Part shown: positions 40,979 to 51,505 of the stretch, one piece after another
How the letters are laid out: each line of letters begins with the position of its first letter
Numbering within the stretch: the stretch's first letter is position 1
Source of the DNA: Ferruginibacter sp.
GTDB lineage: Bacteria > Bacteroidota > Bacteroidia > Chitinophagales > Chitinophagaceae
DNA length: 60,559 nt
NCBI GenBank assembly: GCA_030655145.1
Contig: JAURWD010000083.1
Location: 1 to 60,559 of the forward strand
Direction: 5' to 3'
Notes under the pieces: model-generated
The model's database searches: none
Seen by the model: the letters and a program-made list of their open reading frames with translations, nothing else
Told to the model about the DNA's origin: nothing
Program-made: the position numbers and the translations under genes

Positions 40979-41701
40979 ATGGCGAAACAAAAAGTTAGCC
41001 CGGTTTCGGTGGATGGAGCGGGGTTTTTGACACATGTCGCGTATGACTCGGTGGTGTTCGGCTTTTCGGAAGGGCAGCTTAAGATCTTGTTGATGGAATA
41101 CCATAACACAGGCTTGATCGCCTTGCCGGGCGGATTTATCAGAACGGACGAAGACCTGGACGAAGCGGTGAGACTCGGGCTGGAAGACCGGACCGGAATC
41201 ACTAATATATACCTGGAGCAGTTTCACACTTTTGGCAATAAGAGCCGGCACAAGCCAGAAATACTTCAAAAGATCCTCGAGGCAAATGGGATCCATGCAC
41301 CCAAAGAACACTGGATGTTGCAGCGCTTTATTTCCGTGGCTTATTATGCGTTGGTTGATATCAGCACGGTCTCACTCCAACCAGATGCATTATCGGATTC
41401 GTGTACCTGGTACGAGATCAATCGCCTCCCAAAGCTCATCCTTGATCACGCGACCGTTATTGAAAAAGCCCTCAAGACTTTACGCTTTAACCTGGATAAT
41501 AAGATAAAAGACAGCAACCTCCTGCCTGAAAAATTCACGATGAAAGACTTGCAAAAAGTCTATGAAGCCATCCTGGGCGAAGAGCTGCGGCGCACGAGTT
41601 TCCAAAGAAAAATGCTTGCAGGAAGAATTTTAAAACGCCACGACAAATTATATTCGGGTGAAGCCCACAAAGCTCCGTTCATCTACAGTTTTCACAAATA
41701 G
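40979..41701 (+). CDS. NrtR/AraR-type transcriptional regulator (Nudix-like domain plus winged helix)
   Basis: Nudix-fold N-terminus (VVFGFSEGQLKILLMEYHNTGLIALPGGFIRTDEDLDEAVRLGLEDRTGI) plus C-terminal KFTMKDLQKVYEAILGEELRRTSFQRKMLAGRILKRHDKLYSGEAHKAPFIYSF. Confidence 0.88.
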   Translation: MAKQKVSPVSVDGAGFLTHVAYDSVVFGFSEGQLKILLMEYHNTGLIALPGGFIRTDEDLDEAVRLGLEDRTGITNIYLEQFHTFGNKSRHKPEILQKILEANGIHAPKEHWMLQRFISVAYYALVDISTVSLQPDALSDSCTWYEINRLPKLILDHATVIEKALKTLRFNLDNKIKDSNLLPEKFTMKDLQKVYEAILGEELRRTSFQRKMLAGRILKRHDKLYSGEAHKAPFIYSFHK

Positions 41702-41965
41702 GCAGCTTTGTGTGTTGCTTTTTTTAAGAGCGGAGCGATCACAACATTTTATTCCCCTCACTTACGACCGCATGGATCAATTATCTGCGGCCACCAAAAA
41801 GAAACGGTTTCATCTCATCACAGGTTGTGCATTCGAATCCACAAATATTCATTCGGGGTTAAGCAGGCGACCTATTCCTGTTTATCAAATAATTGAAGGC
41901 ATACACGCAGCAATCAACAAAATCGCAAGGGCATATTATTTGACACTGCTAGAGAAAACAATTCT

Positions 41966-42292
41966 ATGGCAACAACAAAAAAAGCAGCGCCTAAAAAAGC
42001 CGCTGCTCCGAAGAAAAAATCAGCAGCAAAAAAAGCGGCACCGAAAAAAGCCGCAGCAAAAAAAGCCGCACCCAAAAAAGCATCGGCCAAAAAAACTGCA
42101 ACAAAGAAATCAGCTCCAAAGAAAGCCGCAAAAAAATCGGGCGGTAAAAAGAACAAGCTAGGCGTTAAAAATTCTTTAGTGAATAACATCAATGCACGGA
42201 AAAAAAAGGGCGCTTCCCGGCCAAAGAAGAAATCGACGGTATCAAAAGAGAGTTACAACAAAATGGAAAATAACTGGGACGATAAAAAATAG
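41966..42292 (+). CDS. Histone H1-like Lys/Ala/Pro-repeat DNA-binding protein
   Basis: MATTKKAAPKKAAAPKKKSAAKKAAPKKAAAKKAAPKKASAKK... repeats; distinct C-terminal tail NSLVNNINARKKKGASRPKKKSTVSKESYNKM. Confidence 0.8.
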   Translation: MATTKKAAPKKAAAPKKKSAAKKAAPKKAAAKKAAPKKASAKKTATKKSAPKKAAKKSGGKKNKLGVKNSLVNNINARKKKGASRPKKKSTVSKESYNKMENNWDDKK

Positions 42293-47881: not shown

Positions 47882-48850
47882 TTAACTATGGGTGGCATGA
47901 TAGATAAAATACCAGTTAGCACAAATATAAATGAATAACAATACCTGCGCAATGATCATATCAAAACGATTGGCTTCTTTTAATTTTCCTTTTTTAACCA
48001 GGTTTAGCGCGTAAACGGACGCTGTAACCACTGCGAAAATAAAGACAAGTGTAAGTCCGTGAAGCGTGTCAACCAAGGTAAGGGAGGTTGATTCCGGTAA
48101 CGATGAGTCGATGATGTATTTATTTCCAATGGCAGCAAACAAGGAGCCCACACTGAGCCCGAACCGTGAGTCGATGTTATCCGCGTGAATAAAAAAGCAG
48201 ATGTAGGCAATAAAGAAAGAAACATACATTCCCAGGAACATTTTCCAGAAGAGTTCACCGGCATCCCGCCGGATCCCGATCCTTACTTTGAAAGAACTGT
48301 ATTCTACATGTTGCTTGCTGATGCTTTCATCTCCGAATGTTGTTTCATACGCCTTGATGCCGGTGACCATTTCAAAGCTATCGATGTTCCAGCCGCGTAA
48401 GGTGAAACGCGGATCAAAATGTTTGCCGACCGTATCTGTAACAAAGATCAATGACCTGGAATCAAATTGTGAGTTTTCAAGTGAAAGCCGGAGCTTTTGA
48501 CGATCGAAGGGAAAATTGGCGATTTTCCAGGAGTCCTTCATGACGCACTGAAGTTTCATGAGGAGATAGACGCGTTCGCCCGAACTGTCGATGGTAGAAA
48601 ATGATTTCAACACCGATTTTGCTTGAGGGATCTCCAGGTTTTGCACAAAATTAAAAGCCCGGTTTTTATATTTCAGCCACAGCCAAAGATCGATCGTGTA
48701 TTCTTTCTCTTTAAAATCAATGTCGTGGATACTCGTGATGTAAATGCCGGTGGACACCGTGTCCGGCTGGGTATCCAGCGCGAAAGAGGGACGACTGGCC
48801 TGTATGGCGAACAGGACCAGGAACAAAACGAGGGGGCGAAGTTTTTTCAT
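47882..48850 (-). CDS. Pentameric ligand-gated ion channel (Cys-loop superfamily) homologue
   Basis: Signal peptide; beta-rich ligand-binding domain (TGIYITSIHDIDFKEKEYTIDLWLWLKYKN), WKIANFPFDRQKLRLSLENSQFD at the Cys-loop position, four C-terminal hydrophobic helices. Confidence 0.8.
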   Translation of the reverse strand: MKKLRPLVLFLVLFAIQASRPSFALDTQPDTVSTGIYITSIHDIDFKEKEYTIDLWLWLKYKNRAFNFVQNLEIPQAKSVLKSFSTIDSSGERVYLLMKLQCVMKDSWKIANFPFDRQKLRLSLENSQFDSRSLIFVTDTVGKHFDPRFTLRGWNIDSFEMVTGIKAYETTFGDESISKQHVEYSSFKVRIGIRRDAGELFWKMFLGMYVSFFIAYICFFIHADNIDSRFGLSVGSLFAAIGNKYIIDSSLPESTSLTLVDTLHGLTLVFIFAVVTASVYALNLVKKGKLKEANRFDMIIAQVLLFIYICANWYFIYHATHS

Positions 48851-49144: not shown

Positions 49145-49174
49145 TTTGTTCGTACGAAAACTTTCCTACCTTTA
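49145..49174 (+). promoter_or_regulatory. Putative promoter/operator of the BlaI-M56 operon
   Basis: TTTG (49145-49148), palindrome TTCGTACGAA (49149-49158), TACCTTTA (49167-49174, 7/8 of TAnnTTTG consensus positions apart from the last base). Confidence 0.6.
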
Positions 49175-49178
49175 GGTC

Positions 49179-49574
49179 ATGAGCAAACAGGAAGACAATT
49201 TTTCATCAGAACCAACAAAGTCCGAGCTTGAAATTCTCCAGGTCATCTGGCAAAATGGTCCCTCAACCGTTCGATTTGTGAACGACACTTTAAATGAGCA
49301 AAAGCGCCCGGTCCAGTACACTTCTACATTGAAACTAATGCAAATTATGGCGGAAAAGAAAATGCTTCACCGCGACGAAAGCAGCATGAAGCATGTATAT
49401 AGTGCGGCCATGGGCGAGCAACCAACAAAGGGTGCCTTGCTCGACAAGTTTGTAGATACAATGTTCAACGGCTCCGCCAGCAGTTTGATGATGCAGCTAC
49501 TTGGTAATAAGAAAACTTCCCAGGCCGAGATACAGGAAATCAAAGAGCTATTAAATAAACTCGATAAAAGTTAA
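49179..49574 (+). CDS. BlaI/MecI/CopY family transcriptional repressor
   Basis: PTKSELEILQVIWQNGPSTVRFVNDTLNEQKRPVQYTSTLKLMQIMAEKKMLHRDE winged helix. Confidence 0.94.
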   Translation: MSKQEDNFSSEPTKSELEILQVIWQNGPSTVRFVNDTLNEQKRPVQYTSTLKLMQIMAEKKMLHRDESSMKHVYSAAMGEQPTKGALLDKFVDTMFNGSASSLMMQLLGNKKTSQAEIQEIKELLNKLDKS

Positions 49575-49591
49575 TCTTAAAACCACACCCA

Positions 49592-51505
49592 ATGAGTTTG
49601 CTATCCTTCCAGGCATTGTTTAGTGAATCCTTCATAAAAGCGATCAGCTACACCTTGGTGCATTCGCTGTGGCAAGGAATGATATTGGGCCTGGTAGCGG
49701 GTGCCATCATCCTGTTGACAAGGTCAAAGAAGCCTTCCACCCGGTACAATGCGCTGGCAGCGTCCTTGGTCGGTTTTACCGCAGCTACCATTGCAACGTT
49801 CTGGACACAGCTTGGCTCTCTGGCGACGAAATCAATCCAAGCAGTTGAAGTAACTAATATACCTACGGCAACCTATGCAGGAGCCGAACTTCATCCAGTC
49901 GCAGGCTCCACTAATTTTTTAGACCAGGTGTTGTACACTTTCAACAGTTACGCTGACTGGCTTGTGCTTGGATGGATGACAATTATTCTCTTGAAATCAA
50001 TACAACTCACCGCCGGCCTGGTGCAGGCCCACAAGCTGAAAAGCAGCCAGGTCAATGCGGTCAGCGAATATTGGAATGAAAAATTAGTGCAACTAGGCAG
50101 GCAAATGGCCCTTCATAAAGTGGTTTGCTTATTGGAATCCCGAAGAGTGCAGGTTCCCGCCGTTATTGGTTTTATGAAGCCGGTTATCCTGATTCCGGCC
50201 GGGTTGCTAAGCCAGCTCTCGCCGGCGGAAGTCGAGGCCATCCTCTTGCATGAACTGGCGCATATCCGCCGAAAAGATTACCTGGTAAATATTCTGCAAC
50301 ATTTTGTTGAGATCATTTTCTTTTTTAATCCTGCTGTGAGATGGGTTTCAGGTTTGATAAAAGCTGAACGCGAAAATTGTTGCGATGAGATCGCTGTCAG
50401 TCAGACCAATAGCAAAAATAACTACATCAGCGCACTGGTCGCGTTTCACGAAAAAGCGCAGCAGCAACTACCAACCTTCATCCCGGCCTTTGCCGGCGAA
50501 AAAAATCATTTACTCAACCGGGTAAAGAGGATCATATATAATAACAACAAAACATTGAACAACATGGAAAAGAAAATTCTGGCAGCAGGCGTCATTTTGA
50601 CAAGCCTGTTTTTTGTAGCATTCACTTCGCGGGAGCAGCAACCCGTGAAATCTCCCTCCACTGAAATCGCAGATCAATCGACAACCGCAGCTGCGGCGCT
50701 CCCTCCCCAGGATCTCGTTGCGGAACTACGTATTGCAACTGACACCTTGCCCGATAAGGTGCAGAAAGGATTATCCGGTACCATCAATACAACCGTGAAC
50801 GGGAAGAAATACAAAATCGTTACCAAAAACAACGAGGTGCTTGACCTGTATGTAAATGATCAACAAATTCCCGGCGATAAGATCAGCGAACATCGGCCGG
50901 TCATCAACAAAATAATGAAACAGTCAAGGGCTGACCTGGAAGATGCCGAAAAAGAAATAGCCGAGGCACAGATCGAGATCGTGAACGCCGAGAAAGAAAT
51001 TGAAAATGCACAAAAAGAATTAGTCACAGCCCACATCGAATTAACACAGCAGCAGGAAGAGGTGGAAAAGGAACTGGTTCAGGCCACAAAAGACATGGAG
51101 GACTCGAAATCAGAAGTTGAGCAATCAAAGAAAGAGATGGCAGCAGCAAAGTTGGAAATAGAGCAAGCTAAAAAGGATATGAAAAAAGATATGGCCAATG
51201 CAAAAATTGAAATTGAGCAAGCAAAAAAACAATTGGAGCAATCCAAGATTGAAATAGCCAATGCAAAAAAAGATATTGAGCAAGCGAAAAAAGACATCGC
51301 CGAATCTAAAAAAATGCAGGAAGCCATTACCGCAGATTTTGTAAAAGAAAAACTCATCGGTAGCAAAGCTGAACTTGAATCCTATCAACTAAACAACGAC
51401 GAGTTGATCATCAATGGTGTAAAACAATCCGCTGAGATGCATAAAAAGTTCAAGACAAAATTTGTAAAAAGTGAGAAATGGTCTATCAATTATAACAACG
51501 ATTAA
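49592..51505 (+). CDS. M56 family (BlaR1-like) membrane metallopeptidase with long C-terminal coiled coil
   Basis: LLHELAHIRRKDYLVN (HExxH) with upstream TM helices, then a TM (ILAAGVILTSLFFVAFTS) and ~130 residues of heptad repeats. Confidence 0.92.
   Translation: MSLLSFQALFSESFIKAISYTLVHSLWQGMILGLVAGAIILLTRSKKPSTRYNALAASLVGFTAATIATFWTQLGSLATKSIQAVEVTNIPTATYAGAELHPVAGSTNFLDQVLYTFNSYADWLVLGWMTIILLKSIQLTAGLVQAHKLKSSQVNAVSEYWNEKLVQLGRQMALHKVVCLLESRRVQVPAVIGFMKPVILIPAGLLSQLSPAEVEAILLHELAHIRRKDYLVNILQHFVEIIFFFNPAVRWVSGLIKAERENCCDEIAVSQTNSKNNYISALVAFHEKAQQQLPTFIPAFAGEKNHLLNRVKRIIYNNNKTLNNMEKKILAAGVILTSLFFVAFTSREQQPVKSPSTEIADQSTTAAAALPPQDLVAELRIATDTLPDKVQKGLSGTINTTVNGKKYKIVTKNNEVLDLYVNDQQIPGDKISEHRPVINKIMKQSRADLEDAEKEIAEAQIEIVNAEKEIENAQKELVTAHIELTQQQEEVEKELVQATKDMEDSKSEVEQSKKEMAAAKLEIEQAKKDMKKDMANAKIEIEQAKKQLEQSKIEIANAKKDIEQAKKDIAESKKMQEAITADFVKEKLIGSKAELESYQLNNDELIINGVKQSAEMHKKFKTKFVKSEKWSINYNND

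What the first reader, a model, noticed from the sequence alone, without database searches (positions are those of the whole stretch)
49592..51505. M56/BlaR1-like peptidase whose sensor is replaced by a long heptad-repeat coiled coil
The HExxH membrane peptidase core is followed by a TM helix and a small domain (GTINTTVNGKKYKIVTKNNEVLDLYVNDQQIPGD). Then come about 17-18 near-perfect heptads (EIVNAEK EIENAQK ELVTAHI ... QAKKQLE QSKIEIA NAKKDIE QAKKDIA), with one 4-residue KKDM insertion that acts as a stutter. A short tail follows (LESYQLNNDELIINGVKQSAEMHKKFKTKFVKSEKWSINYN). Classical BlaR1/MecR1 carries a penicillin-binding sensor here; this protein shows no SxxK sensor domain. The coiled coil could sense envelope spacing or stress, or recruit a partner, and signal through M56 cleavage to BlaI.
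Basis: partly seen in the sequence, partly recalled or inferred. Interest (0 to 1): 0.65.

Follow-up and report, generated by a model that had tools for sequence, protein, structure and literature searches.

The report
BlaR1-like switch with shared periplasmic tail
A Bacteroidota relative of the antibiotic sensor BlaR1 has no penicillin-sensing part and instead ends in a small, previously unmodelled domain held on a variable coiled-coil spacer; the same domain also occurs on a separate membrane protein whose gene carries sites like those of the BlaI repressor, and on a proton pump encoded beside a BlaI/BlaR1-type pair, pointing to an uncharacterised signalling network.

Summary
In detail: window 49592-51505 encodes a 637-aa M56 (BlaR1-type) peptidase, 17 bp after blaI, with no PBP domain, no SxxK motif C-terminal to the peptidase, and a heptad-repeat helix. 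The interpretation needs correcting. The coil is not the conserved sensor: across Bacteroidota it is a spacer of 0-280 residues, often Pro-rich, absent in two 482-aa homologues. What is conserved is a ~60-residue C-terminal domain with no Pfam, NCBIfam or PDB match ('VNGK tail'); a small domain after the last TM is distantly similar to it. The tail recurs (i) on M56 proteins (30 of 33 with blaI directly upstream), (ii) on a stand-alone TM-coil-tail protein, with an own-genome copy, and (iii) on H+-pyrophosphatases often adjacent to a blaI/tail-less-M56 pair. A BlaI-operator-like repeat (TACGAA-N4-WTCGTA) overlaps the predicted blaI promoter. Its only perfect copy in the 5.3-Mb genome lies 25 bp upstream of the stand-alone tail gene; 19/21 family members carry it (26/562 background genes, P=2e-21). 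A conserved periplasmic PDZ gene has paired sites in 30/30 relatives, none in a genome without a detectable M56. Likely an autoregulated proteolytic switch with a non-beta-lactam periplasmic input; ligand unknown. New variant of a known kind.

The parts
49153..49168 (+). Candidate BlaI operator TACGAAAACTTTCCTA; overlaps the perfect palindrome TTCGTACGAA at 49149-49158
   Evidence: conserved at the same distance from the blaI ATG in orthologous tail-M56 operons (L032, L033, L050, L102, L118, L121, L130, L132); one mismatch to TACGAAn4TTCGTA
49167..49174 (+). Bacteroidota-type -7 promoter box (TACCTTTA), overlapped by the operator
   Evidence: sequence read; consensus TAnnTTTG from general knowledge, not tested
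49179..49574 (+). BlaI/MecI-family repressor, 131 aa
   Evidence: PF03965 E 1.3e-22; aligns with S. aureus BlaI 1sd4, E 2.1e-6; the S. aureus cleavage site N101-F102 aligns with Q106-L107
49592..51505 (+). M56/BlaR1-like membrane metallopeptidase with periplasmic domain 1 - coil - VNGK tail
   Evidence: PF05569 E 2.9e-33; Foldseek best hits are BlaR1 8exs/8ext/8exq/8exp
49919..50530 (+). M56 peptidase core; HELAH at 50249-50263; E261/D265 and R310 conserved
   Evidence: H220, E221, H224, E261, D265, R310 invariant in 37 homologues
50561..50626 (+). Last hydrophobic (TM) helix, residues 324-345
   Evidence: AF2 secondary structure; hydropathy
50777..50902 (+). Domain 1, three-stranded 'VNGK-like' unit (residues ~396-437)
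   Evidence: AF2 strands 396-402, 405-412, 415-421; profile similarity to the tail, hhalign probability 84-90%, E 2e-6 to 8e-6; peptidase-region controls 0.1-0.2%
50909..51319 (+). Variable heptad-repeat spacer (residues ~440-576), predicted as two helices
   Evidence: 21-bp tandem repeat 51200-51294
51320..51502 (+). VNGK tail domain (residues 577-637): helix, beta hairpin, helix, strand
   Evidence: profile hits across the order and phylum; AF2 pLDDT 88; no PDB fold match

Best explanation
The window holds an autoregulated blaI-M56 operon that works like BlaR1/BlaI but with a non-beta-lactam input. The M56 protein sits in the inner membrane; its periplasmic domain 1 and VNGK tail, joined by a coiled-coil spacer, are the input module. 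A periplasmic change or partner acting on the VNGK units alters the peptidase, which cuts BlaI and opens BlaI-repressed promoters: its own operon and, in this family, genes for a stand-alone TM-coil-tail protein and a periplasmic PDZ protein. The stand-alone protein carries the same tail, so once induced it can compete for the same partner (feedback) or deliver the signal in trans to tail-less M56 peptidases; on H+-pyrophosphatases beside blaI-M56 the tail may connect the same pathway to the pump. Shown by sequence: the architecture, catalytic residues, absence of a PBP domain, recurrence of the tail, shared operator-like sites, neighbourhoods. Inferred: periplasmic location, BlaI cleavage, that BlaI is the protein binding the sites, ligand or partner binding by the tail, direction of feedback.
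For: M56 and BlaI family hits, adjacent genes; catalytic residues invariant in 37 homologues, matching the BlaR1 HExxH / E242xxxD246 / R294 set (PMC9834060); Foldseek to BlaR1. blaI directly upstream in 30 of 33 tail-M56 genes with sufficient context. Operator-like block overlaps the predicted blaI promoter and is conserved among orthologues. The only perfect TACGAAn4TTCGTA in the genome is at C244:31937-31952, 25 bp upstream of the stand-alone tail gene; such a site is upstream of 19/21 such genes and 60/67 blaI genes versus 26/562 background genes, Fisher P 2e-21. PDZ gene: paired sites in 30/30 genomes and in 7 of 9 further genomes; the two without sites are G060, with no detectable M56, and G181. 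H+-PPase is next to or near blaI + tail-less M56 in all 20 loci selected for inspection and carries the tail in a subset.
Against: No biochemistry or expression data. Operator assignment rests on motif sharing; the genome has four blaI genes and which BlaI binds the C244 and C200 sites is unknown. The ATCGTA-type second half-site resembles the operators of the tail-less-M56 blaI genes, so the stand-alone and PDZ genes may belong to that paralogous BlaI (own copy on C138) and not to the window's BlaI. H+-PPase/M56 proximity exists with or without the tail, so it is weaker evidence for the tail itself. The reverse-read control pattern gives more one-mismatch genome hits than the operator (46 vs 22), so single one-mismatch sites are not informative alone. 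The full-length model has pTM 0.55 and no coordinates were available, so packing of domain 1 against the tail was not tested.
Confidence: 0.58

Rival explanations
1. One reading: the coiled coil itself is the sensor (envelope spacing or stress) and the tail is an incidental cap.
For: Clear heptad pattern in the window protein and helical spacers in its nearest relatives L032 and L003.
Against: Spacer not conserved in length or type, Pro-rich in many homologues, absent in L118/L123, while the tail persists.
Confidence: 0.12
2. The tail is a structural or assembly element (for example an oligomerisation or anchoring cap) common to several Bacteroidota envelope proteins, with no signalling role; operator sharing reflects a general envelope regulon.
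For: The tail also occurs on secreted or single-TM proteins without BlaI-type sites (L131, L135, L144, L148, L150) and as two copies in one protein (L148, L193).
Against: Within the family it is found mainly on M56-linked hosts, and the stand-alone form carries BlaI-type sites in 19/21 genes.
Confidence: 0.2
3. The system is a beta-lactam response after all: the M56 protein detects drug damage indirectly and BlaI controls a resistance gene.
For: Homology to BlaR1/MecR1 and BlaI; the M. tuberculosis homologue also lacks the sensor and its means of beta-lactam detection is unclear (PMC9834060).
Against: No PBP domain in the protein; the candidate targets found are the operon itself, a tail protein and a PDZ protein. 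No beta-lactamase search was made for the rest of the genome.
Confidence: 0.1

Closest known systems
BlaR1/MecR1 - BlaI/MecI of Staphylococcus and Bacillus (peptidase family M56)
   Same: M56 HExxH core, E-xxx-D and Arg residues, repressor of the BlaI family as neighbour, inverted-repeat site at the repressor's promoter
   Different: no penicillin-binding sensor; periplasmic part is domain 1 - spacer - VNGK tail; candidate targets are a stand-alone tail protein and a PDZ protein
M. tuberculosis BlaI/BlaR (Rv1846c with its M56 partner)
   Same: M56 partner described as lacking an equivalent sensor domain (PMC9834060); BlaI linked to energy genes (Rv1303, co-transcribed with ATP synthase genes; PMC12565901), compare the H+-PPase synteny here
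   Different: no VNGK tail known there; not compared directly here
Membrane H+-pyrophosphatase (PF03030)
   Same: the Chitinophagaceae enzymes with this tail are full H_PPase matches
   Different: carry an extra C-terminal VNGK tail in a subset, and lie beside blaI and a tail-less M56
Type I signal peptidase non-catalytic hairpin (PF10502)
   Same: local 'L-x-V-N-G-K' hairpin resemblance: one member E 0.0013 in Pfam, SpsB E 0.028 by profile, SpsB top but insignificant by Foldseek
   Different: none of the matches is convincing alone; no peptidase domain around the tail

Membership tests
Peptidase family M56 | HExxH zinc motif plus downstream E and D within the M56 membrane fold | tested here: met
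   PF05569 E 2.9e-33; HELAH 220-224, E261, D265 invariant in 37; Foldseek BlaR1
BlaR1/MecR1 beta-lactam sensor | C-terminal penicillin-binding domain with SxxK | tested here: not met
   no Pfam/NCBIfam/PDB-sequence hit after residue 345 to a transpeptidase; only SxxK at residue 13; equivalog score 94 vs cut-off 400
BlaI/MecI repressor (neighbour) | Penicillinase_R fold | tested here: met
   PF03965 E 1.3e-22; aligns to 1sd4, 1okr
BlaI/MecI repressor (neighbour) | inverted-repeat operator at own promoter | tested here: met
   as a sequence feature only; binding not tested
BlaI/MecI repressor (neighbour) | cleavage by the partner peptidase | not testable with these tools
   the S. aureus site N101-F102 aligns to Q106-L107
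Coiled coil | heptad periodicity above shuffles | tested here: met
Coiled coil | parallel rod versus antiparallel hairpin | tested here: inconclusive
   two helices of 77 and 74 residues with a low-confidence loop; coordinates not available

The most novel reading that the evidence does not exclude
Bacteroidota use a BlaI/M56 proteolytic switch whose input is a VNGK domain shared in cis and in trans: fused to the peptidase, on a BlaI-controlled membrane protein, and on an H+-pyrophosphatase encoded beside blaI, so that envelope and proton-pump status are reported through one recognition module.
Probability: 0.25. Interest if true: 0.8.

Novelty: new variant of a known kind. Interest (0 to 1): 0.6.

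Why it matters
What M56/BlaI pairs without a penicillin sensor respond to is open: for the M. tuberculosis homologue the 2023 structural paper calls its beta-lactam detection unclear (PMC9834060). Here a recurring candidate input domain, a candidate operator and three candidate target promoters are defined together, so the input and output of such a system can be tested directly. The tail domain matched no Pfam or NCBIfam model in these searches and would merit one.

Tried and rejected
Coil as the conserved sensor: rejected on spacer variability. A known fold for the tail: no PDB match at E<0.001. Signal-peptidase relationship: weak in each of three searches, kept only as a lead. H+-PPase/M56 proximity as proof of tail function: weakened, because it holds with and without the tail. 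DT[VLI]P motif after the last TM in tail proteins: noted, 'DT.P' in 33/46 tail-M56 entries (some duplicated) versus 23/302 background proteins; meaning unknown, may be a lineage habit. One-mismatch operator hits inside genes (C103, C202, C263) treated as chance. Papers searched for M56/BlaR1 in Bacteroidetes, penicillinase repressor with M56, and Chitinophagaceae BlaI/PDZ gave nothing on this system.

Full report
Observation. The ORF at 49592-51505 encodes a 637-aa protein 17 bp after a 131-aa blaI gene at 49179-49574. Pfam places Peptidase_M56 at residues 110-313 (E 2.9e-33) and Penicillinase_R on the neighbour (E 1.3e-22). HELAH is at 220-224; E261, D265 and R310 are invariant across 37 homologues, matching the catalytic set described for S. 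aureus BlaR1 (PMC9834060). Foldseek's best hits for the AF2 model are the BlaR1 cryo-EM structures. No penicillin-binding domain is found by Pfam, NCBIfam or PDB sequence search, and the only SxxK is at residue 13.

The coil. Residues 447-575 show heptad periodicity well above the shuffle mean and near the maximum of 2000 shuffles, with a 21-bp DNA repeat underneath part of it. AF2 gives two helices, 428-504 and 512-585, with a weak loop; whether they fold back on each other could not be tested without coordinates. In homologues the segment between peptidase and tail varies widely: often Pro-rich, and practically missing in the 482-aa L118 and L123. The coil is therefore a spacer in this family, not its defining part.

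The tail. The last ~60 residues, profiled from 13 sequences, hit 106 of 249 genomes sampled in the order, and an 86-sequence profile hits 44 of 393 in the phylum. Pfam gives nothing for the window's tail and only scattered single-member weak hits for the other 12; NCBIfam gives nothing for the stand-alone forms beyond weak coiled-coil hits and one chance-level hit. The AF2 model (pLDDT 88) is helix, two strands, helix, strand, with no PDB match at E<0.001. Domain 1, just after the last TM, is similar to the tail by profile comparison (probability 84-90%; peptidase-region controls 0.1-0.2%). Some homologues carry two tails (L193).

Where the tail occurs. Among tail-bearing proteins collected, three main kinds appear: M56 fusions, H+-pyrophosphatases, and others, mostly ~250-340 aa with an N-terminal TM or signal peptide, a helical middle and the tail. 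Outside the family it also appears on anti-sigma-like single-TM proteins and secreted proteins ('anti-sigma-like' is a reading of the sequence, not a test). blaI is directly upstream in 30 of 33 tail-M56 genes with enough context. The window's genome has the fused form here and a stand-alone form on contig C244.

Operators. A block TTCGTACGAA...TTCSTACCTTT ends about 5-10 bp before the blaI ATG in the window and in orthologous operons. It contains an inverted repeat related to TACGAA-N4-TTCGTA, which occurs upstream of many blaI genes. In the window's genome the only perfect copy is 25 bp upstream of the stand-alone tail gene. Within 100 bp upstream, a copy with at most one mismatch to TACGAA-N4-WTCGTA is found for 19/21 stand-alone tail genes, 60/67 blaI genes and 26/562 other genes (P 2e-21; related genomes are not independent, so the P value overstates). 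One-mismatch sites pair up 43 bp apart in front of a periplasmic PDZ-domain gene on C200; the same paired arrangement recurs in 30/30 genomes and in 7 of 9 more. The two exceptions are G060, where no M56 was found, and G181. This makes a BlaI the likely binder, but does not say which of the genome's four. The second half-site of the stand-alone genes resembles operators of the blaI genes paired with tail-less M56, so the paralogous system on C138 may be the main controller there.

H+-PPase. Twenty loci chosen because PPase and M56 lay close all show blaI and a tail-less M56 in the PPase neighbourhood, mostly adjacent and same strand. The PPase has the tail only in a subset, so the neighbourhood does not by itself prove a tail function. 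It does parallel the reported control of an ATP-synthase-linked gene by mycobacterial BlaI (PMC12565901).

Mechanism. By analogy with BlaR1, a periplasmic event acting on domain 1 and tail would alter the peptidase, cut BlaI and open its promoters; the induced stand-alone tail protein would then feed back or signal in trans. Cleavage, location, partner and direction are inferred. The verdict is a new variant of the M56/BlaI kind; it is not a member of the beta-lactam-sensing BlaR1/MecR1 group, whose defining sensor is absent.

Noticed in passing
window 47882-48850 (-): Protein with a weak Neur_chan_LBD match (E 1.8e-7): a possible pentameric ligand-gated channel relative beside the blaI operon.
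   Followed up: no
window 41976-42130: 15/30-bp tandem repeat rich in AAA and GCA, inside ORF 41658-42161.
   Followed up: no
L051 upstream of 7483 (-): The orthologue in G016 has no blaI ORF directly upstream, but an operator-like block (TTCGTACGAAATTTTTCCTATCTTT) and what looks like the 3' end of blaI remain: a possible internal deletion or an assembly effect.
   Followed up: partly
L165 1575-2668: The PDZ gene of the window's genome reads as two ORFs in different frames: frameshift or assembly error. Its N-terminal part has an ITVNGKPL hairpin with short profile similarity to the tail (22 columns, probability 92%).
   Followed up: partly
L168 1501-1516: One-mismatch operator-like site about 30 bp upstream of a gene resembling an outer-membrane receptor; chance not excluded.
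   Followed up: no
L193, L194, L200: M56 proteins of another family, with two tails in L193; beside a conserved secreted-protein gene.
   Followed up: partly
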